Source: a virus. From it: 33,015 bases of DNA. The notes under the pieces were generated by a model that saw only the letters and a program-made list of their open reading frames with translations, was not told the origin of the DNA and did no database searches. The stretch is taken from the IMG/VR virus record IMGVR_UViG_3300034061_003140, positions 1-33,015 of that record; one strand, written 5' to 3'. The position numbers and the translations under genes were made by a program. Of the stretch, positions 7,930 to 28,202 are shown in pieces (positions within the stretch are counted from its first letter, which is position 1; every line of letters begins with the position of its first letter).

Positions 7930-10359
7930 ATGCCACTCGTCAGCAGCTCCATCCCCAACCTGATCAATGGAATCAGCCAGCAGCCAGCTGCGCTGCGCCT
8001 GGCATCCCAGGCCGAGCAGGTCGTCAACTGCATGTCGTCCCCGGTTGAGGGACTGAAGAAGCGTCCTCCCTGCTACAACCTCGGCAAGTTGTTCAATGGC
8101 TCAGCTGGAGCTGGCCGGCCGTTCACAACCATCGTCGACCGTGACGCGACCATCAGGTACCTGGTGCTGATCCAGGACAACGCCATCAAGGTGTTCGGGC
8201 TGGATGGCAGCGTCAAGACCGTGACCACGCCAAACGGCACTGGGTACCTGGACATCACTGGCGAGCCCAGCAATGTGTTCAGGGTTGCGTCAGTCGCTGA
8301 TTACACATTCATCGTCAATCGCGAGAAGACGGTTTCAATGCTCACTGGAGGCGGTGACTTGTCGCCGACCTGGGGCACCAAGTCGATGGTGTTTGTGAAA
8401 TCAGCTGATTACGCAACGACGTACACAATTACAGTCAACAGCACCACTGTTACTCACACGACTGCAAACTCTGGTGGCGCAGTTCCTAATGTTGTCACCG
8501 TTGCGTCAGCGCTGGCGACAAGCCTTTCGACTGCGCTTGGCACCGGCTGGACTGTCACAAGCTACGAAAGCAACGTGATGATCACCAGGACCAGCGGCGC
8601 TGATTACACGCTCGCGACCCTTGACAGCAGAAGTGGCGAGATGATCGTCGGCGTCAAGGGAACTGTGGACAGCTTGAGCGACCTCCCGACCAGGGCGGAG
8701 CACGGTTTCATCGTCAAGATCCAAGGCTCCGCTGTGACCAGGACCGACGATTACTACGTCAGATTTGTTGCGAATACTGGCAGCGGCACTGGCCATGGCG
8801 TCTGGAAGGAGACAGTCGCGCCTGGCGTTGTCTACAAGTTTGACCCGGCAACAATGCCGCATGTGCTGGTTCGCAACAATGACGGCACATTTACATTTAA
8901 GCAATTTGATTGGTCGGGTCGTGTCGCCGGTGATCTGGCCACAGCGCCAGAGCCCACCTTTGTCGGCAGCAAGATCCAGAACGTCAATTTGTTCCGCAAC
9001 CGGCTGGCCTTCCTGGCCGACGAAAACATCATCCTGTCTGCTGCTGACAGCTACGACCGTTTCTGGCCCGAGACCGTGCAGACCGTCGTCGACAGCGACC
9101 CGATCGATCTCACGACAGGCGGCCGGCAGATCAACTTCCTGGTCAGCAGCCTGGCCTTTGCCAATGTCCTGCTGCTCTTCAGCCGCCACGGCCAGTTCCG
9201 GCTCGACTCGGGCTCAAACATCGGCACGTCCCTGACGCCCAAGACAGCGACGATCACGCCTGTTACCACGTTCGAGATGCTGCCGGAGGTCGACCCAGTG
9301 GGTGTCGGCCGGACGATTTACTTCTCTGTGCCCAAGGGCGATTTCTCCGGCCTGCGGGAGTTCTTCCTGCCGGACGCCAGCGGCCCGGTACCACTGTCGG
9401 AAGAGGTGACGGCATCAGTGCCGAGGCTCATCCCAGGCAACCTCTGCACGCTGATTGCGTCTGCCTCGGAGGAGAGCATCCTGCTGATCAGCAAGGACCA
9501 GCCCAAGCGGATCTACCTCTACAAGTTCCTGTTCCAGCAGGACACCAAGCTGCAGTCGTCCTGGTCCTACTGGGAGGCGAAGGGCGCCAAGTCGATCATC
9601 GGCGCGAGCATGGTCGACAGCGAGCTGTACCTGGTCGTCGAATACAGCAATGGTGTCTACCTGGAGAAGGTGATCCTGCGGCCGGAGAACGTCGACACGG
9701 GCACCGAGGTCGAGATTCTCCTGGATCGCAAGACCACTGAGGCCAGCTGCTCCGTGGCGCTGACCAACCCGGCGGGCCTCGATGTCCAGAGCACCATCAC
9801 GCTGCCCTATCCGATTGCCGCCGACAGCACCATGGTCGTCGTCGGCCGGTCATTCGCAGGAAACACCCTGCAGCATGGGCAGTTGGTGGTACCTATCAGC
9901 CAGACGCTGACAGGCGGGACAGGCGGCAACGGCACCCTGGTGGTCCGCGGGGACCTGACTGCCTCCAAGTTCTATGTGGGTGAGCTCTACGACATGCTCT
10001 ACGAGTTCAGCACCCAGTACCTGAAGGAGCAGCCGCCTGGCGGTGGCCTGGCTGTTGTGGCCGGCCCCAAGCTGCAGCTGCGCACCTGGACGGTGATCTT
10101 CGACCAGACGTCGCACTTCGAGCTGAAGGTCACCCCCCGGGGCAGGACGACTTACACCTACCCCTACAACGGTCTCGAGCTCGGAGATTCCGAGATCAGC
10201 ATTGGCGAGCTCCCTTTGCGCACTGGCAAGTTCAGGGTTCCGGTCATGACGCAGAACATCGACGCCAAGATTCAGATTGCAAGCAGCAGCGCCCTACCCT
10301 GCAGGTTGCAGTCAGCCGAATGGGAAGGGTGGTATCACACCAGGGCGGGGCGGATGTAA
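7930..10359 (+). CDS. Tail tubular protein B (nozzle), T7 gp12-like
   Basis: An 809-aa protein (T7 gp12 is 794 aa) that builds the hexameric tail nozzle. The N-terminus SSSIPNLINGISQQPAALRLASQAE is diagnostic for the family, followed by NCMSSPVEGLKKRPP. Further matches are FRNRLAFLADENIILSAADSYDRFWP, the LLLFSRHGQFRLDSG segment, and the RTTYTYPYNGLELGD region close to the C-terminus. A stretch at about 8390-8720 (residues 155-264) is richer in Thr/Ser and AT than its flanks and probably corresponds to a variable nozzle domain. The gene overlaps the possible early start of the gp13-like gene but not its preferred one. Confidence 0.96.
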   Translation: MPLVSSSIPNLINGISQQPAALRLASQAEQVVNCMSSPVEGLKKRPPCYNLGKLFNGSAGAGRPFTTIVDRDATIRYLVLIQDNAIKVFGLDGSVKTVTTPNGTGYLDITGEPSNVFRVASVADYTFIVNREKTVSMLTGGGDLSPTWGTKSMVFVKSADYATTYTITVNSTTVTHTTANSGGAVPNVVTVASALATSLSTALGTGWTVTSYESNVMITRTSGADYTLATLDSRSGEMIVGVKGTVDSLSDLPTRAEHGFIVKIQGSAVTRTDDYYVRFVANTGSGTGHGVWKETVAPGVVYKFDPATMPHVLVRNNDGTFTFKQFDWSGRVAGDLATAPEPTFVGSKIQNVNLFRNRLAFLADENIILSAADSYDRFWPETVQTVVDSDPIDLTTGGRQINFLVSSLAFANVLLLFSRHGQFRLDSGSNIGTSLTPKTATITPVTTFEMLPEVDPVGVGRTIYFSVPKGDFSGLREFFLPDASGPVPLSEEVTASVPRLIPGNLCTLIASASEESILLISKDQPKRIYLYKFLFQQDTKLQSSWSYWEAKGAKSIIGASMVDSELYLVVEYSNGVYLEKVILRPENVDTGTEVEILLDRKTTEASCSVALTNPAGLDVQSTITLPYPIAADSTMVVVGRSFAGNTLQHGQLVVPISQTLTGGTGGNGTLVVRGDLTASKFYVGELYDMLYEFSTQYLKEQPPGGGLAVVAGPKLQLRTWTVIFDQTSHFELKVTPRGRTTYTYPYNGLELGDSEISIGELPLRTGKFRVPVMTQNIDAKIQIASSSALPCRLQSAEWEGWYHTRAGRM

Positions 10360-10379
10360 GACCACACACCCGACGGTCT

Positions 10380-10829
10380 GTGGTGAAGGACATCCTGCCT
10401 GTCGCCAACAACATGCGACAGGAGGATGCCGACGAGGTCCGCGCTGGCTGTGGCCAAACGCCTGCCGAGGCGTTGATGTACTGCTTCTTCAAGGGTGATC
10501 CCTGCATGACCATGGTCGGCCGTAGCGGCCGGCCCATGGGCATGTGGGGCGTGGTGCCGCAAGAGGAAGGCTTGGGGCGGATCTGGCTGTTGGGAACCGA
10601 CGAGATGGTCGACGACCCAGCCAACCGGCTGCGGTTCCTGCGCGAAGCCAAGGGATACTTGGATGAAGTGGGAGGGCGTTACAAGGTGCTGTTCAACTAC
10701 GCGGATGCCCGCAACGCGATTCACGTCAAATGGCTTCGGTGGATGGGCTTTACCTTTATCGCCGAGCATTCAAACTATGGAGCAGAAGGTCGAGCGTTTC
10801 TGGAGTTTGTGAGGATGAGCCATGTGTGA
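10380..10829 (+). CDS. Internal virion protein A, T7 gp13-like (GNAT-like fold)
   Basis: A 149-aa protein (T7 gp13 is 138 aa). The order is that of gp13: a short N-terminal helix, EALMYCFFKGDPCMTMVGRSGRPMGMWGVVP, IWLLGTDEM, a helix RLRFLREAKGYLDEV, then NYADARNAIHVKWLRWMGFTFI. The last pattern is typical of GNAT acetyltransferase-like proteins found at this place in T7-like phages. Whether it binds acetyl-CoA is unknown; in T7 gp13 is needed for infective virions. I chose GTG 10380 (10383 is equivalent), because the ATG at 10320 would overlap tail tube B by 40 bp and its extra residues look random. The stop overlaps the next gene by 8 bp. Confidence 0.87.
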   Translation: MVKDILPVANNMRQEDADEVRAGCGQTPAEALMYCFFKGDPCMTMVGRSGRPMGMWGVVPQEEGLGRIWLLGTDEMVDDPANRLRFLREAKGYLDEVGGRYKVLFNYADARNAIHVKWLRWMGFTFIAEHSNYGAEGRAFLEFVRMSHV

Positions 10830-11589
10830 GCCCGTATCGATCACGCTGGGCGTCCTGTCCGCTGGCCTTGGCATCGCTCAAGGCGTTGCCGGGTACCAGC
10901 AGGCCCAGGCCAACACCGCCCAAGCCAACGCCCAAGCGGAGCAGGCTTTCCGCTTCCAGCAGATGCAGGCTTCATCGGCCCGCGGCTTTGAGCAGCTGAA
11001 GCAGCAGCAGCAGGCGTCGGTGATGGAGCAGAACCGGCTGTTGGCGGACACGGCCTACGCCAATGACATCGCCCAACTGAACTTGCGGCTGATGCAGGAG
11101 CAGGAGGCCGCGGCCCAGCAGCAGCGCAAGGCAGCCCTATCGGCCCAAGAAGCTCGAGGGGAGGTCAGGGCGACAGGTCGTCTTGGCTCGTCTGTCGATG
11201 CCCTGATCGCCGATTACTACAGGCAGCAGGCGGCATTTGACTTTGCCACCGAGCGCAACCTGGCGTTCACGACGGCGCAGACGCAACAGCAGAAGGTCGG
11301 GGCCGCGGCGACTAGGGGCAGTCGGCTGGCCAGCCAGCAGCCGTACCTGATGCAGCCGATCCTCGATCCACTGGAACCGATCTACGCCCAGGCTCCCAGT
11401 GCTGCCCCTTACGTCCTGCAGGGTGCGGCAGCCGTGGTGGGAGGAGTGCAGACAGGCATGGCTTCCGCAGCGCAAATCAAAAATCTCAAACTGGGGCAGC
11501 CTCCCAAGTTGCCTCCCGTTTCGGGAACGCAAAACGCTGGCGCGTTCAAGATGGACGCCCTCTATACGCCAACCATCAAGCCGTACTAA
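10822..11589 (+). CDS. Internal virion protein B, T7 gp14-like
   Basis: A 255-aa protein (T7 gp14 is 196 aa), expected to be ejected and to form an outer-membrane channel. The N-terminal hydrophobic segment PVSITLGVLSAGLGIAQGVAGYQ is a likely membrane or pore helix. It is followed by a long Ala/Gln-rich helical region (residues 25-150) with VRATGRLGSSVDALIADYYRQQ, a stretch typical of the gp14 family, and a C-terminal AAAVVGGVQTGMASA hydrophobic helix. A Shine-Dalgarno-like AGGA precedes ATG 10822. Position between gp13-like and gp15-like genes supports the call. Confidence 0.9.
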   Translation: MCEPVSITLGVLSAGLGIAQGVAGYQQAQANTAQANAQAEQAFRFQQMQASSARGFEQLKQQQQASVMEQNRLLADTAYANDIAQLNLRLMQEQEAAAQQQRKAALSAQEARGEVRATGRLGSSVDALIADYYRQQAAFDFATERNLAFTTAQTQQQKVGAAATRGSRLASQQPYLMQPILDPLEPIYAQAPSAAPYVLQGAAAVVGGVQTGMASAAQIKNLKLGQPPKLPPVSGTQNAGAFKMDALYTPTIKPY

Positions 11590-11592
11590 GCC

Positions 11593-14373
11593 ATGGCCAA
11601 GCTCTCTACCGGTCAGACCTACGGCGAAACAGGCCGTGCCACGTCGCAGCGGCTCCTGGGTGGCGCAGAGCAGATGGCGTCAGGCGGAGCCCTGGCCCAG
11701 CAGTCGCTGGGGGTTCCGACACTGCAGCCGCAGGCGGCGCCAGTGAACACATTCCAGCAGGTGGGAGCTCCCACCCTGGGCGGCCCGGTCCGCACTTTTG
11801 CGCCGCCAGAGCTGCCTGCTGCCAGCCAAGACATGGCCAACCTGGCCAGGGCACTGGGCAGCTTCAGCCCTGTCCTTGAAACCTTCGGCCAGCAGTACGT
11901 CGAGAAGCTGAAGGTTGACGACCGGCGTGCCGAGCTGGTCGGCCAGCAGCTTGCGCAAGACCTGCAGGTCAAGTATCCAGGCCAGCAGTTGGCGGAGCTG
12001 CGAGACCAGCTGTACCGCCAAGCCCAGGCAGGCGATGAAGGGGCGGCCAGGGCCTATGCCAAGGTCCAGTCGTTGAGCCCGCTGCAACTGGCTTACGCCA
12101 ATAGATTCACTCAGCGAGCCAATGTCCAGTTTGATCTAGCTAAAGCTGCCGATGAATACAATCGGCTTACTGAAGTAGAGGGCCCCTCTGGGGCCAAGAT
12201 TCCCAAGGAGTGGTTGCAGCCTGGAGATCCACGGCTGCAGGCGGCGAAGACTTCACTGATTAGGATGCCCAGTGACCCAGTAATTTTTGCTGAGGCTCAA
12301 TCGCAGATCTACGCCAAGTACGCAGAGCTTGATTCAGCTCAAACCAAGATTCATAATTCGTGGAAGGAGCGCGAGTTTGGTGCTGCAACCAACCAACTGA
12401 TTGGCAGCTTGGTCCAGTCAGGAGCAAGTGTCGCTGATGCACAGTTAGCAATTAGCGAGATGGCGACGTCTGCTCGCATTGTGCTTGGGGCGGAGGGTTA
12501 TCCGAGGTGGATGGAAGCCCTTGAGCCGTCCTTCCAGGCGGCAATCAATGTGGCCAGTTTGAACGCGCAGGGTGGCATTGACTATGAGAAGCAGCAGTAC
12601 CTGTCGGGACAGAAGCAGGTCATCCTCGCTGGAGTCATCGCCGGCCCCAACGGCGAGACCTACCTGCAGCGCCTTGGGGCGAAGGGTGGCGCTGTTGCCC
12701 AGCTGGAAGGGCTGCAGCGCAGCCTGAGCAGCCTGAAGGAGATCAAGCAAGCAACCGACACGGTGCTTGGCTACCAAGGCGAGAAGATTGCTCCACAGGT
12801 GATCGCTCAGTTCAGGCTCAACGATCCAGCACTGGTCGGTCGTGACCGCGAAAAGGCGGCTGCGGAAGCGAGGGCTTACGTGATGCAGATGCCACCGGGC
12901 CCAGCCCAGGTGGAGGCCAGTCAGCAGGTAGAGCGAGCTATCAACTCAGGCGGACGGGTCGATGAGTTCTTCCGCAATGAGGCCGAGCGCAGGGCATATG
13001 AGATTGATCGATCTGGCATGGCGCCTGAGCAAAAGCTAAATGAATACGATCGATTGAACAAGGAAGGGTTAATCGACCCAGGCAAGCTAAAAGGCTTGGT
13101 GTCTGATGCAAAGCGCGAGCAGTCGCAGCGCGATAGACCGGCGCAAAACGCCATCGAGGAAGGCATCAAGCAGCTACTGAAGAAGGAGCAGGGCTTCCTG
13201 GTTTTACCGGGGCAGGGGCAAGGTTTGCAGCAAAGCGAGTCCAACTACTTGATTAACCGCAACGCACAAATCAGGGACGAGTTAAACCAGATTCGCCGCA
13301 GTGGTTACGCCAATAATGCAAGTCCGCAGCAAATCTTTCAAGAACAAAAGAAGTATCTGGATGGTTTGGGCAAGGAGCTGCAGGGACGCATCGACACGCG
13401 CGCTCCATTGAGCGCACGGCCCGTCATTCAAGACGTCAACAGCTACTACGACCAGCGTGGTGGGTTCCTTGGCCTTGGCCGCGGCGGTCGTGCCCCACAG
13501 GCGACACAGCTCAACCGGGCTGTCGACGCAGGCTTGGTCATGCCGGAAGCTGCATTCCGAAATGCCCTAACCGAATGGGCGGAGAAGAATACCCTGACGG
13601 ACCAGACGCGCCAGATCATCAAGGACTCCGGCTATGGCACCAAGGCTGACGATTTCTTCCGCAAGCAATGGAAAAATCACTATCCCGGTGTGCCATTCCC
13701 CGAGCAGTACGACGGTCGTATGAATGACCTCAAGGGTCAGAAGGTGAGTTACGTGCCGCCGGCAGGTGGCAGCGGGGGGCTTGCCATGGTCAATCCCAGC
13801 CAGATGACAGCGATGCGACTGGCGTCGTTCTTGCAGAACACGGGGAATGCGGCCATGAATGCGCTGGTGCCACCAGCTGCAGCTGAACCCATGCCGCTGG
13901 CAATGGCCGCCATTGGCCCGGTCGGTGCCGGCTCGGCCAGCCTGCTGGATGTGATCAAAAAACTGCGTGGCGCCAACCAGTTTCGTGGCACCAGCCTTGT
14001 CAAAAACAAGAGGCCAGGGGACTACCAAAGCGACCCGCGAGAGAACTGGTTTTTTGACTTCAACCCGCAGGTTGTTCCCAAAGCCATTGCTCGAGCTCGT
14101 CGGTTAAGCGAACAGGACATCAACGCGCTGGCATTTACTGCGTTGACCGAGGCTGGTCCCACGACGATGGGCAAGCTAGAAGTGGCCGCCAACTTGATCA
14201 ATCGCTCGGCCATTGCGGGCAACAAGCCGATTGTCGACATCGCCAAGGCTCCTGGCCAATACGAAGGGGTGTTTGGTTACACGAAGCAGCAGGTAGTGAG
14301 CGCCGCAGAGGGCAGACGAATCTTTGGCAGCCGATACGATCAGGTCAAGCGACTGCTGCGGCAGGGGATCTGA
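11593..14373 (+). CDS. Internal virion protein C, gp15-like, with C-terminal SleB-type hydrolase-like domain
   Basis: A 926-aa protein (T7 gp15 is 747 aa) in the gp15 slot, expected to form part of the ejected core and periplasmic conduit. Residues 1-780 are mainly helical and Gln/Ala/Arg-rich, starting with STGQTYGETGRATSQRLL. The last 90 residues differ. From R837 the pattern LSEQDINALAFTALTEAGP, then GKLEVAANLINRSAIAG and DIAKAPGQYEGVFGY, resembles SleB/CwlJ-type cell-wall hydrolases, which have a catalytic Glu in an 'AxAEA' context, a VAxVxxNR helix and a 'xxPGQF' loop; the matching Glu here is E853. In T7 the murein transglycosylase is at the gp16 N-terminus, so this would be a relocated wall-opening activity. 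Positions 12961-13380 have about 52% GC by hand count, below the flanks. The N-terminal role is inferred from position. Confidence 0.85.
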   Translation: MAKLSTGQTYGETGRATSQRLLGGAEQMASGGALAQQSLGVPTLQPQAAPVNTFQQVGAPTLGGPVRTFAPPELPAASQDMANLARALGSFSPVLETFGQQYVEKLKVDDRRAELVGQQLAQDLQVKYPGQQLAELRDQLYRQAQAGDEGAARAYAKVQSLSPLQLAYANRFTQRANVQFDLAKAADEYNRLTEVEGPSGAKIPKEWLQPGDPRLQAAKTSLIRMPSDPVIFAEAQSQIYAKYAELDSAQTKIHNSWKEREFGAATNQLIGSLVQSGASVADAQLAISEMATSARIVLGAEGYPRWMEALEPSFQAAINVASLNAQGGIDYEKQQYLSGQKQVILAGVIAGPNGETYLQRLGAKGGAVAQLEGLQRSLSSLKEIKQATDTVLGYQGEKIAPQVIAQFRLNDPALVGRDREKAAAEARAYVMQMPPGPAQVEASQQVERAINSGGRVDEFFRNEAERRAYEIDRSGMAPEQKLNEYDRLNKEGLIDPGKLKGLVSDAKREQSQRDRPAQNAIEEGIKQLLKKEQGFLVLPGQGQGLQQSESNYLINRNAQIRDELNQIRRSGYANNASPQQIFQEQKKYLDGLGKELQGRIDTRAPLSARPVIQDVNSYYDQRGGFLGLGRGGRAPQATQLNRAVDAGLVMPEAAFRNALTEWAEKNTLTDQTRQIIKDSGYGTKADDFFRKQWKNHYPGVPFPEQYDGRMNDLKGQKVSYVPPAGGSGGLAMVNPSQMTAMRLASFLQNTGNAAMNALVPPAAAEPMPLAMAAIGPVGAGSASLLDVIKKLRGANQFRGTSLVKNKRPGDYQSDPRENWFFDFNPQVVPKAIARARRLSEQDINALAFTALTEAGPTTMGKLEVAANLINRSAIAGNKPIVDIAKAPGQYEGVFGYTKQQVVSAAEGRRIFGSRYDQVKRLLRQGI

Positions 14374-14376
14374 TCG

Positions 14377-17300
14377 ATGCCTTACGAAATCGTTGTCGAC
14401 GAGAAGACCGGCGAGCGTCGGGCGGTGGTCACCGGTGCCGTCTACAAGCCCAAGGCAGGCGAACAGCCCAAGGGTGCAGGGCCCACGCTGCCCAGCCCGA
14501 TGGATCTGTACGAGGCCACTCGAGGTCTGGGCCCGCAAGGGATGCTGGAGAGCGGCGTCAAGATGGGCGCCCAAGTGGTCGGCCGCGGCGTCCAAGAGCT
14601 GCAGCGGACTGGCGACCTAGGCAAAGCTGTCACGGCTGCCGGCTCTGAGGTCGGGCGGCAGATGCAGGCCCCATCAATGATTGGTGCCCGGGTCGGCTAC
14701 AACGCCGCCCGTGACCTGGCGCAGAGCGTGCTGGGCAACTTGCCAGCTGCTGGTAGCCGCAAGCCAGGCCAAGCCGACTCTCCCATCTTGGGCGTGATGC
14801 CTCCTCTGCCGCGGATCAAGAGCACGGGCGCAGGGGAGGACTTGGTCACTGGTTTCATGCAGGGCGCCATGGCATGGATCCTTGCCGCCCGTGGCGGCAG
14901 CCTTGCTGCCAAGGGTCTGACTGCAATCCCAGGTGTCGGAACAGCCGCCCAAGCCACTCGCACTGCCGCGGCCTTTGCGCAGGGCGGCGGCGCCGTTCCT
15001 CGGCTTGCCATCGGAGCGACCAAGGCCGTGGTCAAAGGTGCTCCCACGGGCTTGGTGGTGGATGCGTTGGCGTTCACGCCAGGCGAGCAGACCATGGTCG
15101 GTCAGATCCTCGACTGGGCGGAGAAGCAGTCAGGCACGCCACTGCATGGCCCTTTGGTGGACTTGTTCCGCACCAAGCCTGGCGACACAGAAGCCGACGC
15201 TCGGTGGAAGGAAGGCGTGGGCGGGCTTGCTGTGGTCGGCCCCGGGGCGGAGGCTGTCATTCGCACGACAGGTCTTGCTGCTCGAGCACTGTTCAACCTG
15301 GCGAAGGTGAGGCAGGCGGCAGCAGCCTCTCCTGCTCCTACCCCTGCTCCCGCCCCAACTCCGACTCCTGCTGCTCCTACCCCTGCTCCTACTGCCGCTG
15401 CTCCCGCGGCCGTACCGACGCCCGCTGCTGCCACTGCTCCGGCTGCTCCGACCGCTGTCGTGCCTGCTCCTGTGGCTGTGGCGGCACCACAACGGCAAGC
15501 CAAGATCGACGTCGCACAGCAGCAATACGACGCAGCCAAGGCCAAGCTGGACGCCATCGGTCCCGAGCCCAGCAAGCCCAGTAGCGAGAAGAAGCGTTTT
15601 GGGGCCAACGGCATTGCCGGGGCGAAGCCAGCGGATGTTGCCCAGTGGAAGGCTGAGACCAGCACGTACAACAGCTGGCGTCGTCAGTACCTCAAGCTGA
15701 AGCGGGAAGAGGTTGCGGCTGCCAACCAACTGGTTGCTGCGAAGCAGGAATCACAGGCCCCTGTCGCACCGACTGCTGCGCAGACGGAGGTTGAGGAAGC
15801 GGCAGCACAAGCCGTAAAGGCCGTCGCGGACATGGAAGCTGCCATGCAGGCGGCAGTGGAGCGTGGCCAGCAAGTGGCCCAGCAAGTCACGACGCCACCT
15901 GTCGCACCTGAAGTTCCCGCAGTTGGGACACCTGCAGTCCCAAGCGCAGGGCCTCCGGTCGCGACTGCGCCCGCTGGCGGCCTTGACCCCGCCGACATCG
16001 CAAGCCTGCGTGACACCACGGGCCTGTCGCCCGAGGAAGCAGCGCTCTTCAGGGAAGCTGCTGATCTGTTGGAAAGTATGGATGCGACAACGACCAAAGG
16101 CATCCAGGACGCACGAAACGTCCTGGATCGGGTCGCAGCTTCTGAGCGGCAGTTCCTCCTTGAGGGCGCTGCTCCGACCCCAAGGGATGCAGCTATCGAG
16201 CGATTGAACAAGGCGTTAGAGATGCCGGCTGTTGAGCGGCCGCCTGCCCCTGCTGCTGCGCCAGCCCCCCAGCCCCAGGCCGCTGCCCAAGCACCCGCTG
16301 CACCCATCGACATTCCGCCTGGCGCCAGCCGCAAGATCACAGAGCGGACTAACGAAAACCGAATCCAAGTCGCAGCAGAGAGTCTCGCTTCGTGGCTGGC
16401 TCCCATCAATGGCGGCAAGCCGCTGCCCTTGGATCGCGCGTTGGATCTGGTGCGGGCGAAAGGCGCGATCCTTGACCCTGATGCCATCCCCAACTTGGAC
16501 ATGGAGGCGGCGCGATCCGACATGACCAAATGGAAGGCCGTGTCCAATACCGCTGCCATTGATCCAGTTGCCAATGCCTACAAGCAGTTCTATGGAGCCC
16601 GCACGTCAGGGGCAAAATCCTTCGATGGACTCGAGTCGCCCACCTTGGCACCTGAGCAGCCGCCTGCCCCTGCTGCTGTGCCGGCTGCTCAGCCCCAAGC
16701 CGCGCCCACTGCCACTGCTGTCGCGCCTGGCCAAGCGGGCCTCCCAGACACCCGCGGTCAAGGGCAGTTCTTCCATGGTGCGGCACAAGAGTTCAAGCTG
16801 ACCGAAGGCGGTGAGTATGCCGGCGATGGGATGAACATCTACGGCAATGGCTTCTATGCCACCGAAGATCTTCAAACTGCTGCTGCCTACCAGAAGAAAA
16901 ACATCAAAGCCAAACCCGTCGTCACCATGTATGCGGCGTCGAATGAATTGAGCGGTGCTGGCGCCACACCGGCAGAAATCAACTGGCTTGAGGGCCGCGG
17001 CCGCAGGAACGCGCCAGCCCTTACCCAGGAGCGGATGCAAGAGATTGCAGCCAACTTGCGGAAAGAAGCGTCCCAGTATCCCGCCAACAATATAACGCAG
17101 CGGCAGCTGAAGCTGGCGGAAACTCTGGAGGATTACAAGCCTGTTGATCTAAACGCTCAGAAGGTTGTTTACCAAATTACCGAAAACCAGCCAATCAAGT
17201 TCTTTGATCTCGACGCGCCCATCAGCGCTGAAATGCGAGATCGCATTAGTGCGATTCCTGGATACGGCGCCGCTCGCGAATTAGTCGATTCGTCGCTTGA

Positions 17301-20300
17301 CGAGGTGCCAGCTAACGCTTCGTTGGCGCAGGTCATGGATGAAATCCGAGGCGCATCAAAATCATTTGAAGTACCTGCTTATGACGTCCAGGAGATCTTT
17401 GATGCGTTGATTGATTCGCTCAAGGCTGAGGGCTATGGCGGGTTCTCCCACGAGGGCGGCCGGCTGGCCGGCGGTGGCAAGCGACTGCACACAGTGCGGA
17501 TCTATTGGGATCCAGCAACCAGCATCAGCCTGGAGAAGGTTGACCTAGGCGCCAAGTCCCCGACCCTGGCATCGGAACAGCTTGGTGGCTTGGATCCCGA
17601 TGCAGTGCGCAAGGCTGGCGAGATCCTTCCCGACGAGTTGCCTGAGTCGTATCGCGTCGACCCAGACGTTGCTGCAGCCGTCAAGGACAGCATGGTCAAT
17701 GCGGTGCGCCGCATCGCTGGCGACGACGTCGTCGTGCGCTTTCAAGAGGGCATGGTGTTCCGGCCAGGAACTGCTGCCCATGGGACTCAGGGCAAGATGC
17801 GTCGCATTGGCGGCGGCTACACCCTCGACGTGGAATCAAGCATTCAAGGCGATCCAATCAGGGAAGTAATCGACTTCCATGAAATGTCATTGCTGCCATT
17901 CAAGGGAGCGAAGGTTGTTGACTACGAAAAGCTCAAGCTGAATGTCGCGGCGCACGAAGCGTTCCACGTTCTGCAGCTCAGAAGCATGACTGCTGATCAG
18001 CTGAAGGTCATGGACACCATGTTCGCAAAACTGAAGCTGTACTTTGCTGCCAAGAATCAAATGGGGCGGCGGTCTGGACGAAAAGACAAACCCATTGAGC
18101 TGGGTGCGCAGGCGTTCGAAAGCTACGACGAGGCCGATCGAGCTGGTGTCACGCCAGCGGCAGTCATGCTTGGTGTCACGCCAGACGACATCAAGTTTTT
18201 CGATGGCCTCGAAAAAGATGATGTCCTTACGAAAGTTGTTGGGACTGCTGGCAAAGCCATTCTTGATGGCATTGCTTTGGTCGACGACATGTTCGACTAT
18301 GCCGAGAAGCTATACAACGCCTTCCGAGGCCGCGGATGGACATCTGTTCGGGACATCTTTGCGCAAGCATCTGCCGGTCAGCTGAAAAAGCAGACTGACG
18401 AACTTGGCAATGTCCTCGACGTCATCGGGATTGGCGAAGGACAGGAGAAGGAATGGGCGGCTCGGATTCGAGAGCTCGACAAGCAGGGCGCCCCTGCCAT
18501 GAAAGGCCTGCTTGAGGTGGCCAAAGACGAAGGCCTGCTGTCGGAGCAACTCCCTCAGCTGACCAGCGAGATGCCAGGGGCCCCCCGCCCCGCTGATCTG
18601 CCTCCTGGCCCCGAGGATCCCGACTGGGTGACGTCGTTCGCGCGACTGTTGCAGGACAACCGCGACCGTCTGCTGAGCGGCGAGATCACCATGGAGGATC
18701 TCTACAAGCTGAACAGCTTCCAGAAGGCTGAGAGCCCCAGCGGAGAGCAGGTTTACACGGCTCAGTCGGAAGACCTGATCCCTGGTTTGAATGCCATGTC
18801 GCAGGTGCTGCCTGATCGCGCTACGCAGTCAGGTATCCCGTCGTTCACGGCAGCCGAGACCGTCAGGCTCAACCAGCAATGGTTCGACCGTCGCGGTGAG
18901 GATGGTGCTGCCATCTTGCGTGGCCTGGACGCCATCACTCAGGGCTTCAGCGCCTACGAACATGGCGCGCTGAACCGTGCCATGGCGCTGGCTGACCTGA
19001 AGCAGGTGGAAGCGCAGATGGAAGCAGCCAAGTGGCTGAACAGCGTGGGCGAACCAGGCGCCAATGCGTCAGAGCGGCTGGCGAAGTTGATGACCGCGGC
19101 CGACTCAGCCCGTCGCATGCACCTGGCCATCATGAAGGTCACTCGGCCTTGGGGCCAACTGGGTGCTGAGATGCAGCTGCCCAGGAACTACGACATCCCG
19201 ACCGCGACAGGTGTCGTAGACGAAGGCATGGCAGCCCCTGCTGCCGGCGTGGTGGAGGAGCCAGCTGTGCCTCCCGCTCCAGGCGCTGCGGCAGAAGCCG
19301 TGGCACCTCCGGCCCCGGGCGTCAGCGTGGTGGATCAGGGCATCAAGCAGGAGCTCGAGCAGTCCGACACGGTGTACGACGGCCTGACATCGAAGGTGTC
19401 GCCCGAGCTGACCGAAGCGGCTCAGGGTGGAGAGATCACTCCGAAGGCCGAGGCTGATGCCGACGCCATTGCTCAGGCCATCGTGAGCATGGGGGCTGAG
19501 CCCAAGATCAGGACCAAGACCTGGCGCAAGCTGGACGAGGTCAATCAGATGGACGCCAATGCGCTGCTGATGCTGCGCACCAACAACCTGATCAGCAGTG
19601 GCGTCACGATGATGACCAACCTGACCAACGGCATCGTCAACCTTGGAAGGTTGGGGATGGCGCAGACGTCGGGCGCCGTGCTGTCTGGCGATTTCGACCG
19701 GGCCATGTACAGCATCCAGATGCTGGGTAGCTACTTGTCGAATCTGCAAAACGGTTTCCGTGTTGCAGGCCATGCGTTCAAGGCAGGGCAGCCGTTGTTC
19801 AACATGGAAGCCAGCTCACTGGATTACCTGGAACGCTTGGCCAAGCGTGATGCGCAGGGTGACCTGCTGCAGGACGACCCCAATGCGATGACCGGGTGGA
19901 CCTTGAACACCATGAACATGAGCCAGGCATGGGCGGAGACTCGCCCTGGGCAGGCACTGAACATGCTGTGGAAGGTGGTGGGGACTGGCGCCAGCCGAGT
20001 GGCGGTCAGCATCGATGCTTTCAACAGCACCGTCGCCGGCTATTCCTATGAGCACTTCCGACACATGCCGCGTGGCATGGAGTTGGCAGTGGAGCGTGGC
20101 TTGAAGAAGCACAGCGCCGAGGCTTGGGATTACGCCCAGCAGTACGCCGCGGCCAGGACAGACCAGGCGATCAAGGACGCCGTGATCAACGGCAAGACCT
20201 TGGCCGACGTGGCCATGGAGAGCCCGCATGCGCAGAAGTTCATGGATGCAGTGAACTTCACCGACAAGATTTGGGCCGAGCTCGAGCCTCGCACCTTGGA

Positions 20301-21870
20301 CGAGGGCATGAGGATCGGTGCGACTCGTGACCTGAAGGGTGACGAGCTGATGGACTTTGCCAAGAAATACGTGGATGAAGGGTTCTTCATGCACAAGCTG
20401 GCTGACGGGATGCTCAATGGTCCGGTGCCGTTGGGTCGCATTGGATCGCTGCCCGGGGAAGCGCTTCAGACCCTGTCCAGTGCGCGGATGATCGGACCGG
20501 TGTTCAAGTTCATCCAGCCGTTCCAGCGGGTGCCAAGCAACATCATCAAGTCAGCCATGCGCAGCACTCCTGCTGCCGTCTTTGTGGACTCGTTCTGGCG
20601 TGACATCACCAGCTCCGACGCTGGCACCCGCCAACGTGCCGTTGGCGAGATCGCTGTTGGCTCTGGCGTCATGACCATGCTGACCTTGGCGACCACCATG
20701 GGGCACCTGCGGATCAATGGCGCAGGGCCACAGGATCCATTGGCCCGCGAGAAGTGGATGAGGGATCGGCAGATGCCGTACTCCATCCAGTTCTGGGACC
20801 AGGACAACGCTCGATGGAATGCCCCAGTGTCCCTGGCGGCAATGGAACCATTCGCCACGCTGTTCGGCGCAGTGGGCGATTACACCGACGTGGCAGCCAG
20901 CCTGCCGACGGAGTCACGCAACCGGCTTGGCAGTGCGCTGGTGCTGTCCTTGGTGCGGATGCAGACCAGCGGCATCCTGAACAAGACCTACTTCCAAGGC
21001 ATCAACGAGCTGTACGAAGCAGCGTTTGATCCTGCGAAGACCTTCGTCGGCGCTGCGCAGCGGGATCCCTTCGCCCGGTACCTGCAGCGGATCACCGCCA
21101 GCATGGTGCCGTACAGCTCCGCGCTGCGTGCCGCTCGACGTCAGGTCGATCCGATCGCTCGGAGTGTGGACCCCAGTGAGGCCGGCGGCCTTTGGGGTTT
21201 CTGGCAGGAGACCTGGGACGAGATTCGGAATGCCGTGCCTGGGTACTCGCAAGGCCTGCCTGCACGTCGTGACTGGACGCTGCCTGGAGCTCCACCCATG
21301 GTGCTGCCTCAGGTCATTGGCACTGGGATGATCGACGAGGATGCCCCGTTCCTGGCAGCCATGATGCAGTTCGTGCCGTGGTCTGCATTCCGGGAGGGCC
21401 GCCCGATTGACGACCCAGTGCAACGGGAGATGGCAGAGATCCATGGCAAGGGGTCCACATTCAGCGGGCCGCGCGCTTCGGACTTCGGACCTGAGATGCG
21501 ACTGACCCCAAGCCAGTTGGCTCAGTACCAAGAGGTCTTCGCTTCGGTGAAGGATGAGTTCGGCCGGACATGGCACCAGGCGGTGACCGAGCTGATCACT
21601 TCAGCCGATTACCAAGCCCTGCCCATCGAGCCACCTTCCACCCAGCAGGTGAGCTACCGGGCCGCGTTCATCCAGCAGGAGATCCAGAAGTACAAGGAGC
21701 TGGCCAAGCAGGTCTTTGGGAGCGCCACCGCCAAGGGCGCAGAGATCGAGCGGAACAAGGTGATGCAGCAAGGGCGGCGAGATGAAATGAACTTCTTGCG
21801 CCGGTACGGTGGAGCCACTACCTCAGAGCCAGCAGGCGCCCAGCCCTGGTCGATCACCCCCAACCGCTGA
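14377..21870 (+). CDS. Giant gp16-position internal virion protein with polyvalent ART-like and metallopeptidase-like domains
   Basis: At 2497 aa this is nearly twice T7 gp16 (1318 aa). Order: residues 1-305, an N-terminal region with hydrophobic helices and VDALAFTPGEQTMVGQILDW... TEADARWKEGVGGLAVVG; 317-372, a Pro/Ala/Thr linker; 373-470, a coiled coil; more Pro/Ala linkers near 507-535, 616-648 and 760-787. Next is an ADP-ribosyltransferase-like domain, about 797-1055 (FFHGAAQEF with H800, GNGFYATED with Y827, VVTMYAASN, and RIYWDPATSISLEK). A zincin-like domain follows, about 1085-1340, with HEAFH (H1193, E1194, H1197), a possible third ligand E1241 or E1248, and the tail LYNAFRGRGWTSVRDIF. 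After a linker near 1617-1650, residues 1725-2497 (LMLRTNNLISSGVTMMTNLTNG...) match the conserved region of large polyvalent proteins. I infer ejection into the host with DNA. Both enzyme activities are unproven, and no transglycosylase motif was seen. Confidence 0.88.
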   Translation: MPYEIVVDEKTGERRAVVTGAVYKPKAGEQPKGAGPTLPSPMDLYEATRGLGPQGMLESGVKMGAQVVGRGVQELQRTGDLGKAVTAAGSEVGRQMQAPSMIGARVGYNAARDLAQSVLGNLPAAGSRKPGQADSPILGVMPPLPRIKSTGAGEDLVTGFMQGAMAWILAARGGSLAAKGLTAIPGVGTAAQATRTAAAFAQGGGAVPRLAIGATKAVVKGAPTGLVVDALAFTPGEQTMVGQILDWAEKQSGTPLHGPLVDLFRTKPGDTEADARWKEGVGGLAVVGPGAEAVIRTTGLAARALFNLAKVRQAAAASPAPTPAPAPTPTPAAPTPAPTAAAPAAVPTPAAATAPAAPTAVVPAPVAVAAPQRQAKIDVAQQQYDAAKAKLDAIGPEPSKPSSEKKRFGANGIAGAKPADVAQWKAETSTYNSWRRQYLKLKREEVAAANQLVAAKQESQAPVAPTAAQTEVEEAAAQAVKAVADMEAAMQAAVERGQQVAQQVTTPPVAPEVPAVGTPAVPSAGPPVATAPAGGLDPADIASLRDTTGLSPEEAALFREAADLLESMDATTTKGIQDARNVLDRVAASERQFLLEGAAPTPRDAAIERLNKALEMPAVERPPAPAAAPAPQPQAAAQAPAAPIDIPPGASRKITERTNENRIQVAAESLASWLAPINGGKPLPLDRALDLVRAKGAILDPDAIPNLDMEAARSDMTKWKAVSNTAAIDPVANAYKQFYGARTSGAKSFDGLESPTLAPEQPPAPAAVPAAQPQAAPTATAVAPGQAGLPDTRGQGQFFHGAAQEFKLTEGGEYAGDGMNIYGNGFYATEDLQTAAAYQKKNIKAKPVVTMYAASNELSGAGATPAEINWLEGRGRRNAPALTQERMQEIAANLRKEASQYPANNITQRQLKLAETLEDYKPVDLNAQKVVYQITENQPIKFFDLDAPISAEMRDRISAIPGYGAARELVDSSLDEVPANASLAQVMDEIRGASKSFEVPAYDVQEIFDALIDSLKAEGYGGFSHEGGRLAGGGKRLHTVRIYWDPATSISLEKVDLGAKSPTLASEQLGGLDPDAVRKAGEILPDELPESYRVDPDVAAAVKDSMVNAVRRIAGDDVVVRFQEGMVFRPGTAAHGTQGKMRRIGGGYTLDVESSIQGDPIREVIDFHEMSLLPFKGAKVVDYEKLKLNVAAHEAFHVLQLRSMTADQLKVMDTMFAKLKLYFAAKNQMGRRSGRKDKPIELGAQAFESYDEADRAGVTPAAVMLGVTPDDIKFFDGLEKDDVLTKVVGTAGKAILDGIALVDDMFDYAEKLYNAFRGRGWTSVRDIFAQASAGQLKKQTDELGNVLDVIGIGEGQEKEWAARIRELDKQGAPAMKGLLEVAKDEGLLSEQLPQLTSEMPGAPRPADLPPGPEDPDWVTSFARLLQDNRDRLLSGEITMEDLYKLNSFQKAESPSGEQVYTAQSEDLIPGLNAMSQVLPDRATQSGIPSFTAAETVRLNQQWFDRRGEDGAAILRGLDAITQGFSAYEHGALNRAMALADLKQVEAQMEAAKWLNSVGEPGANASERLAKLMTAADSARRMHLAIMKVTRPWGQLGAEMQLPRNYDIPTATGVVDEGMAAPAAGVVEEPAVPPAPGAAAEAVAPPAPGVSVVDQGIKQELEQSDTVYDGLTSKVSPELTEAAQGGEITPKAEADADAIAQAIVSMGAEPKIRTKTWRKLDEVNQMDANALLMLRTNNLISSGVTMMTNLTNGIVNLGRLGMAQTSGAVLSGDFDRAMYSIQMLGSYLSNLQNGFRVAGHAFKAGQPLFNMEASSLDYLERLAKRDAQGDLLQDDPNAMTGWTLNTMNMSQAWAETRPGQALNMLWKVVGTGASRVAVSIDAFNSTVAGYSYEHFRHMPRGMELAVERGLKKHSAEAWDYAQQYAAARTDQAIKDAVINGKTLADVAMESPHAQKFMDAVNFTDKIWAELEPRTLDEGMRIGATRDLKGDELMDFAKKYVDEGFFMHKLADGMLNGPVPLGRIGSLPGEALQTLSSARMIGPVFKFIQPFQRVPSNIIKSAMRSTPAAVFVDSFWRDITSSDAGTRQRAVGEIAVGSGVMTMLTLATTMGHLRINGAGPQDPLAREKWMRDRQMPYSIQFWDQDNARWNAPVSLAAMEPFATLFGAVGDYTDVAASLPTESRNRLGSALVLSLVRMQTSGILNKTYFQGINELYEAAFDPAKTFVGAAQRDPFARYLQRITASMVPYSSALRAARRQVDPIARSVDPSEAGGLWGFWQETWDEIRNAVPGYSQGLPARRDWTLPGAPPMVLPQVIGTGMIDEDAPFLAAMMQFVPWSAFREGRPIDDPVQREMAEIHGKGSTFSGPRASDFGPEMRLTPSQLAQYQEVFASVKDEFGRTWHQAVTELITSADYQALPIEPPSTQQVSYRAAFIQQEIQKYKELAKQVFGSATAKGAEIERNKVMQQGRRDEMNFLRRYGGATTSEPAGAQPWSITPNR
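16239..16678 (+). repeat. In-frame direct repeat in the linkers of the giant core protein
   Basis: The same 20 bases (GCCGCCTGCCCCTGCTGCTG) occur at 16239-16258 and 16659-16678, 420 bp (140 codons) apart and in the same frame; both encode PPAPAA, and flanking codons are also similar (PQPQAA / QPQAAP). Recombination between them would remove or duplicate residues about 628-767 without breaking the frame, so they could drive domain shuffling. Confidence 0.8.
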
Positions 21871-22928
21871 TGGCTTACTCCTACGTCCTGTATACCGGCA
21901 ACGGATCAAATAGGCAGTTCGCGGTGCCGTTTGGCTATATCAGCCAAGAGCATGTGCGGGCCCTTGTAAATGGTTCGCCGGTTACATTTACCTGGATCAA
22001 CAGCGGTTTGATCCAGTTAGACGTGGCGCCGGCTAACGGCGCTGCCGTCCGCGTCTACCGGCAGACGCCACTGACGGAGCCTCTCGTCGACTTCACCGAT
22101 GGGTCGACGCCTGTCGCCGCTGACTTCGACACAAATGCAAAGCAGTCGATTTATACCCAGCAGGAGCTAGACGACAGCCTGGTCGAGGGACTGGCAGGTG
22201 TCATTCCCAACGGGGACAAGGGCGACATCACGACGTCTGTCGGTGGAACGGTTTGGACGATCGACAACCAAGCTGTCACCAGCGCCAAGATCGCGGATGG
22301 GACCATCGTCGACGGGGACATCAGCGCAACTGCTGCAATTGCAGGTACCAAGGTTGCGTTCGCCCCCTACGGCACCGTCGCCTCAACCAATGTCCAGGCG
22401 GCCATCCAGGAGCTGGACGACACCATCACCGCCCTGCCACCCCCCGTTGACCCAACCCCCGCGGGGACGGTGACATGGACGGCACGCACCACGGCGCCAA
22501 CCGGGTACCTCAAGGCCAACGGCGCAGCCGTCAGCCGCACAACCTACTCCGCATTGTTTGCTGCCATCGGCACCACTTATGGCGTCGGCGATAACAGCAC
22601 CACGTTCAACTTGCCTGATTTGCGGGGTGAGTTTGCGCGGGGTTGGGACGACGGCCGTGGCATTGACACTGGCCGCGCCATGGGTTCAAGCCAAGCGCAA
22701 AACTATCAGAGCCACACTCACTCTGTTAGCGACCCCGGCCACACACACGGCCAGACTGGCGAGTTTATTGTGAACGGCGGAGGCATCCAAGTTAGTGGTC
22801 CGGCCGGTCACTATATCGGCGGTGGCGGCTATATCTATAGCAACACCACTGGCATCAGCATTGCTGCCAATGGTGGCACGGAGACGCGCCCCCGCAACAT
22901 TGCCCTTCTTGTTTGCATCAAGCACTGA
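21870..22928 (+). CDS. Tail fibre protein (T7 gp17-like N-terminus plus tail-collar domain)
   Basis: A 352-aa fibre whose ATG overlaps the stop of the giant core gene (TGATG). Residues 1-100 match the T7 tail-fibre N-terminal domain that anchors the fibre to the tail: LYTGNGSNRQFAVPFGYIS..., TPLTEPLVDFTDGSTPVAADFD, and the following helix. The centre has repeated collagen- or beta-like motifs (TSAKIADGTIVDGDISATAAIAG). Residues about 197-280 are a phage tail-collar domain (GTVTWTARTTAPTGYLKANGAAVSRTTYSALFAAIG, then FNLPDLRGEFARGWDDG). A His-rich HTHSVSDPGHTHG segment typical of such fibres follows. It is the probable receptor-binding protein and therefore a host-range determinant. It is shorter than T7 gp17 (553 aa), so a partner protein may complete the tip. 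Confidence 0.93.
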   Translation: MAYSYVLYTGNGSNRQFAVPFGYISQEHVRALVNGSPVTFTWINSGLIQLDVAPANGAAVRVYRQTPLTEPLVDFTDGSTPVAADFDTNAKQSIYTQQELDDSLVEGLAGVIPNGDKGDITTSVGGTVWTIDNQAVTSAKIADGTIVDGDISATAAIAGTKVAFAPYGTVASTNVQAAIQELDDTITALPPPVDPTPAGTVTWTARTTAPTGYLKANGAAVSRTTYSALFAAIGTTYGVGDNSTTFNLPDLRGEFARGWDDGRGIDTGRAMGSSQAQNYQSHTHSVSDPGHTHGQTGEFIVNGGGIQVSGPAGHYIGGGGYIYSNTTGISIAANGGTETRPRNIALLVCIKH

Positions 22929-25609: not shown

Positions 25610-27220
25610 CTAGGACCCGAAGTAATGGGACATGGGGACGACCAGTCGCCCTGTCAGCTGGTCGTAGAGGAGCTTGTCGCAGGGGCCTGTCTGCCCGGAG
25701 AACCGGTTCTTCAGGACCCGAAGCTGTAGCTCGTTGCGCTCAGCGACGTCGCCTTGCTGGTTGCGCTCAGCGCCAATGACCATGTCACTGAGCTGGGCGA
25801 TGGCATGGCTGCCTCTGAGCTGGGAGAGGGAGGTCTGGGCCCCCTCCTCATGGCCGCGGCCCTCCGGCCGCTTGAGGTGGGATACCAGGATCAGGCCAAT
25901 GCCGGTCTGTTCCACCACCTGGCGGAGCTTGGTGCAGGTGACGTCGATGGCTCGCCGTTCGTCAAGGTCCGCCAAGCCACTGATCACGATGGTGAGGTGA
26001 TCAAGGACGACGAGGTCAGCCTGCTCTGCATCGGCCAGGTACCTGATTTTGTTGATCAGGTGATCGGGATCCATCGATCCGAAATGGTCGTACAGGTAGC
26101 AGCGGCCGGAGCCGAACACCCGATCGAAGCCATCACGGAGCTCCTCCTCGCTGGCGAGAGAGGGATCCAGGTGGATGGGCTTGCCGAGCTCGATGCCAAC
26201 AATGCCCTGCATGGTGCGCTTGACGCTCTCCTCGAGGGCGATGTAGCCCACCCTGAGGCCCTGCCGTAGGAAGTGGTGAGCCACCTCCCGGCAGACGGAC
26301 GACTTACCCACGCCAGAGCCAGCGCAGATGGTCGTCATCTCACCCTTGCGGAAGCCATGGGTCATGGCATTCAGCTGTGGCCAGGGGTACTGACAGACCG
26401 AGGAGGCCCCCGGTTTGATCAGTTCCTCCCACAGCTCGCTGGCATTGACGATGCCGTCAGGCCTGGATGGCGTGGCCTTCCAGAGAAGGTCGCGCAGCTG
26501 CTCACCTTCGCCGGCCAGCAGCATGTCATTGGCGTCCTTGCGAGGCAGCCGGCAGATGGCCACCTTGCCCAAGGGCAGGACGGTCAGTGCCTCGTTGGCT
26601 GCCTTCTCGCCCGGGTCGTCGCTGTCGAAACACAGCACGATCCGCTGGAACTGTGACAGCCAGGGTGCGTTGGCAGCCAGGTACTTCTTGGCTGACTGCG
26701 CACCATTGGGCAGGGATACCACTGGGTAGCGGTTGCCCTGCACCTGGCTGACCGACATGGCATCGATCTCACCTTCGGTGACGACAACGAAGGCGCCGCC
26801 ACTGCCGCCAATCCCTTGGCGCCAGAGGTGCTGACCCCACAGCTGCATGTTGCTGGTGTCGCCCAGCCAGCGGAACCGCTTGTCTGGACTGCGCACATGC
26901 TGCGCAACCACCTTGCCTTGCTGGTCCCTGTAGGCAGCGATCTGGACCGGCTGCCCGTTGTGACTGGAACAGCCATAGCCGAACAGCTTGCACGTCTCTT
27001 CGAGGATCCCTCGCTTGCCGAGTGGCTTGATGTTGACGAACTCGATCAGTGGTGTGGTGGGTGGTGGCATTGGCTCGATGGGGCGGAGCTTCTCACCCTT
27101 GGGTGGTTGCTCTTGGTAGCCACAGCCAAAGCAGGTGGCGTGACCGTCGTCGTATCTGGCCAGGTTGTTCTTGCTGTTGCACTGAGGACAGGCCTCATGC
27201 TTCAGGAACTTGGACGGCAT
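25610..27220 (-). CDS. Primase-helicase, T7 gp4-like
   Basis: A 536-aa bifunctional protein (T7 gp4A is 566 aa). The N-terminal zinc-binding domain has CPQC (11-14) and CFGC (30-33), which reads the primer site. A TOPRIM primase core follows, with VTEGEIDAMS and CFDSDDPGEKAANEA, then the DnaB-like helicase with Walker A GSGVGKSS (Lys306), LVVLDHLTIV as Walker B, ILVSHLKRPEGRGHEEG, LRGSHAIAQLSDMVIGAERN and the C-terminal arginine-rich LRVLKNRFSGQTG motif. The start ATG 27220 lies inside the endonuclease gene's end (26-bp overlap). It unwinds and primes the fork; no DNA polymerase partner gene is present in this window. Confidence 0.96.
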   Translation of the reverse strand: MPSKFLKHEACPQCNSKNNLARYDDGHATCFGCGYQEQPPKGEKLRPIEPMPPPTTPLIEFVNIKPLGKRGILEETCKLFGYGCSSHNGQPVQIAAYRDQQGKVVAQHVRSPDKRFRWLGDTSNMQLWGQHLWRQGIGGSGGAFVVVTEGEIDAMSVSQVQGNRYPVVSLPNGAQSAKKYLAANAPWLSQFQRIVLCFDSDDPGEKAANEALTVLPLGKVAICRLPRKDANDMLLAGEGEQLRDLLWKATPSRPDGIVNASELWEELIKPGASSVCQYPWPQLNAMTHGFRKGEMTTICAGSGVGKSSVCREVAHHFLRQGLRVGYIALEESVKRTMQGIVGIELGKPIHLDPSLASEEELRDGFDRVFGSGRCYLYDHFGSMDPDHLINKIRYLADAEQADLVVLDHLTIVISGLADLDERRAIDVTCTKLRQVVEQTGIGLILVSHLKRPEGRGHEEGAQTSLSQLRGSHAIAQLSDMVIGAERNQQGDVAERNELQLRVLKNRFSGQTGPCDKLLYDQLTGRLVVPMSHYFGS

Positions 27221-27557: not shown

Positions 27558-27567
27558 GGATCGGAAC

Positions 27568-28200: not shown

Positions 28201-28202
28201 GT

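What the first reader, a model, noticed from the sequence alone, without database searches (positions are those of the whole stretch)
14377..21870. 2497-aa polyvalent ejection protein in the gp16 slot of a T7-like phage
The protein in the position of T7 gp16 is about twice the usual size. It carries the architecture of 'polyvalent proteins' (Iyer and colleagues' concept: large, multi-domain proteins of phages and conjugative elements that are delivered with DNA and act against host defence). N- and C-terminal conserved segments (DALAFTPGEQTMVGQILDW; NAFRGRGWTSVRDIF; LMLRTNNLISSGVTMMTNLTNG) enclose two enzyme-like modules joined by Pro/Ala linkers. Internal core proteins of T7 enter the cell with the genome, so this would place polyvalent enzymes in the ejectosome and deliver them before any gene is transcribed.
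Basis: partly seen in the sequence, partly recalled or inferred. Interest (0 to 1): 0.85.

Follow-up and report, generated by a model that had tools for sequence, protein, structure and literature searches.

The report
Phage injection protein with swappable enzymes
A T7-like virus of bacteria carries, in the slot of the protein that it pushes into the cell ahead of its DNA, a double-size protein whose middle is a set of interchangeable enzyme-like modules that related viruses swap with each other, so the injection machine may double as a delivery vehicle for effectors.

Summary
The ORF is real: 14377-21870, 2497 aa, between a gp15-slot gene and the tail fibre of a T7-like structural operon. 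N (1-305) and C (1411-2480) segments belong to the gp16 / internal virion protein D family of marine T7-like phages. A giants-only C-terminal HMM finds P-SSP7 gp16 at 1.6e-10 and CRP-114 at 3e-33; T7 gp16 is not detected. In ordinary ~1.3-kaa members nothing large lies between N and C. Here about 1100 residues do: P/A linkers, small helical modules, an ADP-ribosyltransferase-like domain (ART, 788-1058) and a zincin-type metallopeptidase domain (MPT, HExxH 1193-1197 plus E1241). At least 35 IMG/VR contigs and 17 cultured Prochlorococcus P-SCSP1 phages carry the same chassis with other module sets: ParB-fold+MPT, ParB+ART, ParB+ART+MPT, ART alone, MPT alone. Near-identical proteins differ by clean replacement of one module (L002/L031: ParB 99%, C 97%, MPT 25%; L051/L056: ART replaced between copies of a 19-aa linker). 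Not shown: packaging, ejection, catalysis, any anti-defence role, sequence homology to T7 gp16. No description found in the papers held. New variant of a known kind.

The parts
14377..21870 (+). Giant gp16-slot internal virion (ejection) protein, 2497 aa
   Evidence: Open frame, ATG start; PHROG 6651 internal virion protein E 1.8e-19 at 2039-2265; between gp15 slot and tail fibre
14377..15291 (+). N-terminal conserved segment, residues 1-305
   Evidence: Aligned in relatives; HMM also finds it in ordinary gp16s HTVC025P (6.9e-18) and CRP-114 (1e-23)
15490..15756 (+). Small helical module, residues 372-460
   Evidence: 71% identical to L039 410-498
15964..16239 (+). Small helical module, residues 530-621
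   Evidence: 78% identical to L004 165-253, where it lies just before the metallopeptidase module
16233..16300 (+). P/A-rich linker, copy 1 of a 68-nt direct repeat
   Evidence: 78% identical to copy 2; 53/68 matches against at most 40/68 in 200 codon shuffles
16354..16638 (+). Small module, residues 660-754, bracketed by the repeated linkers
   Evidence: Homologous to L005 908-986 (52%), L039, L040, L051 783-858, at other positions in the chain
16653..16720 (+). P/A-rich linker, copy 2 of the 68-nt direct repeat
16738..17550 (+). ADP-ribosyltransferase-like domain, residues 788-1058; motifs FFHG at 798, GFYAT at 825, HTVRIYWD at 1038
   Evidence: HMM family with L013, L014, L016, L043, L049, L051; Pfam DUF3990 0.054 in window, 9.8e-7 in L016; ART-PolyVal 7e-4 in L049; BFVD ART-PolyVal matches
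17623..18477 (+). Zincin-like metallopeptidase domain, residues 1083-1367; HEAFH 1193-1197 and Glu1241
   Evidence: HExxH and the later Glu in all aligned members that cover them; AF2 fold order helix, sheet, HExxH helix, Glu helix; dN/dS about 0.1
18607..21816 (+). C-terminal conserved gp16 segment, residues 1411-2480, with a hydrophobic stretch at 2088-2106
   Evidence: HMM built from giants only finds P-SSP7 gp16 1.6e-10, S-TIP28 2e-29, CRP-804 4.5e-34, CRP-114 3e-33
11593..14373 (+). gp15-slot internal virion protein, 926 aa
   Evidence: Position; no family match beyond weak phrog_16633
10822..11589 (+). gp14-like internal virion protein
   Evidence: Pfam T7_gp14 1.4e-12
21870..22928 (+). 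Tail fibre, T7 gp17 N-terminal domain plus collar
   Evidence: Pfam Phage_T7_tail 3e-23

Best explanation
This is the gp16-type ejection protein of a T7-like phage used as a chassis for an exchangeable effector cassette. The N- and C-terminal parts do the usual gp16 job. Between them a cassette is carried: here an ART-like domain and a zincin metallopeptidase, in relatives also a ParB-fold DNA-binding module, joined by P/A linkers. Most likely the protein is packed in the head and ejected first. The cassette reaches the cytoplasm with gp16-C, the metallopeptidase frees or processes domains, and the ART-like domain modifies a host target. Cassettes change quickly, by recombination in the linkers. 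Shown by sequence: chassis, modules, module exchange, purifying selection. Inferred: virion location, ejection, processing, target, anti-defence role, and the recombination route.
For: Operon context of a T7-like phage: terL, portal, scaffold, MCP, gp11/gp12, gp14, gp15 slot, gp16 slot, tail fibre. N and C segments homologous to ordinary 1.2-1.3-kaa internal virion protein D / gp16 of marine T7-like phages. ART and MPT modules. ParB module of relatives: 28 PDB structure matches at E<=1e-3, all ParB/Noc/KorB/Spo0J; TIGR00180 0.0038 in P-SCSP1c. Module sets vary: at least 5 changes of ART, 4 of ParB, 3 of MPT on the C-domain tree. Clean swaps in near-identical proteins and a shared 19-aa linker at module joints in 10 of 35 proteins. 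MPT and ART as typical polyvalent domains, and packaged polyvalent proteins of N4 and P1: PMC5512222.
Against: No virion proteomics for this phage or any cassette-bearing relative; the P-SCSP1u cryo-EM paper gave no hit for mass spectrometry or internal core. No sequence homology to T7 gp16 detected (hhalign E 0.014, probability 3; HMM E 31). ART match in the window itself is weak (0.054), and the third catalytic position lacks the usual Glu (Thr here; Gln or Ser in relatives). MPT against the N4 MPTase profile gave only 11 columns at the HExxH motif. PDB structure matches of the ART+MPT model were all above E 0.1.
Confidence: 0.62

Rival explanations
1. The cassette works inside the phage or in the periplasm, not as a host-directed effector: the metallopeptidase matures or unfolds the ejection proteins or cuts envelope proteins, and the other modules are structural or bind the phage's own DNA.
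For: MPT is the module present in nearly all giants; prepackaging processing by MPTases is one of the roles considered in PMC5512222; the ParB fold with helix-turn-helix would suit phage-DNA binding; ART third position is non-canonical.
Against: L016 and L049 lack MPT yet keep the chassis, so it is not essential for assembly; ordinary gp16s work without any cassette; fast exchange of modules fits conflict rather than a fixed structural job.
Confidence: 0.25
2. The modules are inert remnants that enlarge gp16 without function.
For: Module loss and gain is frequent; the third ART catalytic residue is not Glu.
Against: dN/dS about 0.1 in ART (L016/L049) and MPT (window/L002); HExxH and Glu kept in all members aligned over them.
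Confidence: 0.06
3. Assembly chimera or artificial gene fusion.
For: The window is a metagenomic virus record of 33 kb.
Against: Same architecture in many independent contigs and in 17 cultured Prochlorococcus phage genomes; L006 is 100% identical over 2050-2497.
Confidence: 0.01

Closest known systems
gp16 / internal virion protein D of marine T7-like phages (P-SSP7 gp16, CRP-114 gp40, S-TIP28 48, HTVC025P gp39, P60 gp34)
   Same: Same gene slot; homologous C segment, and N segment in CRP-114 and HTVC025P
   Different: 1.2-1.6 kaa and none of the ParB, ART or MPT modules
Prochlorococcus phage P-SCSP1 g21 (2571 aa, hypothetical protein; MPP-C clade)
   Same: Same chassis with N, MPT and C segments; authors guess internal virion protein from size and position only (PMC9860041)
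   Different: ParB-fold module instead of the window's ART type
N4 virion RNA polymerase and other phage polyvalent proteins (Iyer et al. 2017, PMC5512222)
   Same: Giant virion-module protein combining MPTase, ART or ParB-type domains; N4 vRNAP always fused to MPTase and sometimes to ART
   Different: No RNA polymerase here; chassis is a T7-type ejection protein; T7-like phages get no mention by that name in the paper's main text; profile link to the N4 MPTase not shown
Uncultured phage MedDCM-OCT-S31-C1 (Nohivirus) 1484-aa ORF
   Same: ParB + MPT; best BFVD structure match to the window's ART+MPT model (8.8e-9)
   Different: Cassette is a separate ORF followed by a 1145-aa gene; the C-segment HMM does not find that gene (E 2.9)
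T7 gp16
   Same: Gene slot, large ejection protein, hydrophobic C-terminal stretch
   Different: No sequence homology detected; N-terminal transglycosylase not found here by Pfam

Membership tests
gp16 / internal virion protein D (T7-like ejection protein) | Gene slot between gp15 and the tail fibre in a T7-like structural operon | tested here: met
gp16 / internal virion protein D (T7-like ejection protein) | Sequence homology to annotated gp16 / IVP-D of T7-like phages | tested here: met
   Giants-only HMM: CRP-804 4.5e-34, S-TIP28 2e-29, P-SSP7 gp16 1.6e-10; best shuffled 2.2
gp16 / internal virion protein D (T7-like ejection protein) | Sequence homology to T7 gp16 itself | tested here: inconclusive
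   hhalign against a 90-sequence profile E 0.014, probability 3; HMM E 31; window scan no better at the matching position
gp16 / internal virion protein D (T7-like ejection protein) | N-terminal transglycosylase (not universal) | tested here: not met
   No Pfam match; the domain is also absent from P22-like gp16s (PMC8954989), so it does not define the family
gp16 / internal virion protein D (T7-like ejection protein) | Present in virion and ejected | not testable with these tools
   needs proteomics
Polyvalent proteins (Iyer et al. 2017) | Unrelated enzymatic domains combined in one polypeptide | tested here: met
   ART-like + zincin in window; ParB-fold too in relatives
Polyvalent proteins (Iyer et al. 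2017) | Variable architectures over shared domains | tested here: met
Polyvalent proteins (Iyer et al. 2017) | Encoded among virion genes of an invasive element | tested here: met
Polyvalent proteins (Iyer et al. 2017) | Delivered into the host with DNA | not testable with these tools
   inferred only
Zincin MPTase of polyvalent proteins | HExxH helix and a following helix with Glu, after an N-terminal helix and a beta sheet | tested here: met
   H1193, E1194, H1197, E1241; AF2 element order
Zincin MPTase of polyvalent proteins | Profile match to a known polyvalent MPTase (N4) | tested here: inconclusive
   11 columns, E 0.0023, probability 12.7
ART superfamily | Sequence or fold match | tested here: met
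   DUF3990 and ART-PolyVal in relatives, below Pfam's own cut-offs; BFVD ART-PolyVal matches
ART superfamily | Canonical H-Y-E catalytic triad | tested here: not met
   FHG and GFY motifs kept; Thr (Gln or Ser in relatives) where Glu is expected; so it is called ART-like and activity is open

The most novel reading that the evidence does not exclude
A lineage of T7-like phages has made its ejectosome protein into a delivery chassis with exchangeable effectors (ART types, ParB-fold, divergent zincins), replaced by recombination at conserved linker sequences, so that each phage injects its own enzyme set before any gene is expressed.
Probability: 0.5. Interest if true: 0.8.

Novelty: new variant of a known kind. 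Interest (0 to 1): 0.64.

Why it matters
Injected effectors are well known from T4-like, N4-like and P1-like phages; podoviruses were thought poor in them (3% encode ARTs, PMC9503650). If right, a common T7-like group delivers them through the DNA ejection machine itself, which gives an annotation and a testable function to proteins that authors of the cultured P-SCSP1 genomes could not annotate (PMC9860041). The module swaps between near-identical genes suggest a natural modular injection chassis for proteins.

Tried and rejected
Pfam, NCBIfam and PHROGs on the window protein: one weak DUF3990 hit and PHROG 6651. PDB sequence search with C, ART+MPT and ParB profiles: nothing convincing. LPD38 in the C segment: considered; Pfam gave no hit in 20 members. 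T7 gp16 homology by iterated HMM, hhalign and sub-windows: not found. N4 MPTase profile link: motif only. Prophages in 84,980 genomes: none encodes a relative of the C segment. Assembly artefact: rejected. An extra ART-like stretch in P-SCSP1c near 1605-1745, read by eye, had no Pfam support.

Full report
Observation. The frame 14377-21870 (+) is open over 2497 codons. The surroundings are a T7-like structural operon: terminase large subunit (1-2091), M15 endolysin (2283-2852), head-tail connector (3396-5144), scaffold (5277-6107), capsid (6284-7267), tube protein (7318-7926), nozzle (7930-10359), a phrog_308 internal virion protein (10320-10829), gp14 family protein (10822-11589), a 926-aa gp15-slot protein (11593-14373), the giant, and the tail fibre (21870-22928). 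On the right, on the minus strand, are a T7-type helicase-primase (25610-27220) and a T7-type RNA polymerase (28203-30626). The window is a 33,015-base virus record, probably incomplete.

Chassis. PHROG 6651, internal virion protein, matches 2039-2265 at 1.8e-19. tblastn finds P-SCSP1 phages and internal virion protein D of Roseobacter and Pelagibacter phages. A scan with the C-terminal alignment gave 43 viral loci. An HMM built from the giants only finds CRP-804 (4.5e-34), CRP-114 (3.2e-33), S-TIP28 (2e-29), HTVC025P (2.2e-14), P60 (1.1e-10) and P-SSP7 gp16 (1.6e-10); the best shuffled sequence scored 2.2 and T7 gp16 31. The N-terminal HMM finds HTVC025P and CRP-114. In CRP-114 the two matches are 173 residues apart, in the window about 1100. 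So the cassette sits between the two halves of an otherwise ordinary gp16 of this lineage.

Modules. The ART-like domain (788-1058) is shared with L013, L014, L016, L043, L049, L051. In L016 and L049 Pfam gives DUF3990 at 9.8e-7 and 7.1e-6, and ART-PolyVal at 1.3e-3 and 7.2e-4, below Pfam's own cut-offs. The AF2 model of 780-1410 (mean pLDDT 78.6) matches BFVD entries named large polyvalent protein associated (8.8e-9) and ART-PolyVal-like (2.9e-4); PDB matches were weak, including the RES toxin 9r35 (probability 0.77) and several zincins such as M32 carboxypeptidase and DPP III. Where the third ART catalytic Glu is expected the alignment has Thr (window), Gln or Ser (which residue is expected is my knowledge of the family). 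The metallopeptidase has HExxH at 1193-1197 and Glu1241, kept in all aligned members that cover them, including very divergent ones. Its predicted element order matches the description in Iyer et al. (PMC5512222).

Relatives. In the variable zone most relatives carry a ParB-fold module with an invariant NGHN motif. Its AF2 model (pLDDT 63.5) matches ParB, Noc, KorB and Spo0J structures, 28 at E<=1e-3, the best 3.8e-7. Module sets among complete proteins: ParB+MPT (most), ART+MPT (window, L051), ParB+ART+MPT (L043), ParB+ART (L049), ART only (L016), MPT only (L056). On the C-segment tree ART changes state at least 5 times, ParB 4, MPT 3 (a quick tree with several long branches, so the counts are rough).

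Exchange. L002 and L031 are 99% identical in ParB and 97% in C, but 25% in MPT. L051 and L056 share N (93% DNA) and C (94% aa); between them L051 has the ART module and L056 another module, each between two copies of the linker TAVQPMGNVAAAAIEPP or a close variant; in L056 the two DNA copies are 93% identical over 58 nt. The linker occurs in 10 of 35 proteins, always between modules. L002 and L012 differ by a clean loss of about 107 residues. In the window a 68-nt P/A linker repeat brackets a small module (660-754); its 53/68 matches exceed all 200 codon shuffles (maximum 40). Small modules of the window occur at other positions in relatives. Window MPT is 78% identical to that of L002 while C is 60%, which suggests that MPT modules move between lineages. 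Selection on ART and MPT is purifying (dN/dS about 0.1; window/L051 ART is saturated at synonymous sites). That the exchange runs by homologous recombination in the linkers is inference from their repetition and position.

Function. In T7, gp16 is ejected and its C-terminal part is presumed to reach the cytoplasm (PMC8954989). By analogy the cassette would be delivered with it. Polyvalent proteins of other phages are packaged and their MPTase is proposed to process them (PMC5512222). Applying this here is inference: no proteomics exists in what I read, and the P-SCSP1u cryo-EM paper gave no hit for mass spectrometry or an internal core.

Literature. Searches for internal virion protein with polyvalent or with ADP-ribosyltransferase, LPD38, T7-like with ejection protein and polyvalent, and large polyvalent protein with Autographiviridae found no paper describing polyvalent modules in a T7-like gp16. 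Only open-licence PMC papers are held, so this is not proof of absence. UniProt names for related proteins already contain polyvalent terms, so databases hold the domain hint.

Verdict. Delivery, activity and anti-defence role stay inferred. The added finding is the exchangeable cassette with repeated linkers and its presence in culturable Prochlorococcus phages.

Noticed in passing
window 25610-30626 (-): T7-type helicase-primase and RNA polymerase genes lie on the strand opposite to the structural operon, unlike T7 where all genes point one way.
   Followed up: no
L057 841-8556 (P-SCSP1c g21) and its homologues: A 2571-aa hypothetical protein of cultured Prochlorococcus phages can be annotated as a gp16-type protein with ParB-fold and metallopeptidase modules; a stretch near 1605-1745 reads like a further ART by eye, without Pfam support.
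   Followed up: partly
L056 7379-8167: The module that replaces ART (residues about 417-679) has no Pfam match; by eye it has a GRY..YG / GHDGLVI / QVIAYN pattern that might be another ART type.
   Followed up: partly
L014 5842-11094, L064 14417-18871: In these phages the ParB/ART/MPT or ParB/MPT cassette is a separate ORF followed by a large gene (1166 and 1145 aa) whose product the gp16 C-segment HMM does not find.
   Followed up: partly
L035, residues about 1331-1434: About 20 tandem copies of the tetrapeptide PGAG inside the gp16-type protein.
   Followed up: no
Ruegeria phage 45A6 (KT820175) 33179-33709; Salisaeta icosahedral phage 1 32311-32592: Encode relatives of the ParB-fold module; in the second the feature is annotated as a DNA methyltransferase.
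   Followed up: no
L041 3-2087 and 1541-3715: The gp16-type gene is split over two overlapping frames, a frameshift or sequencing error.
   Followed up: no
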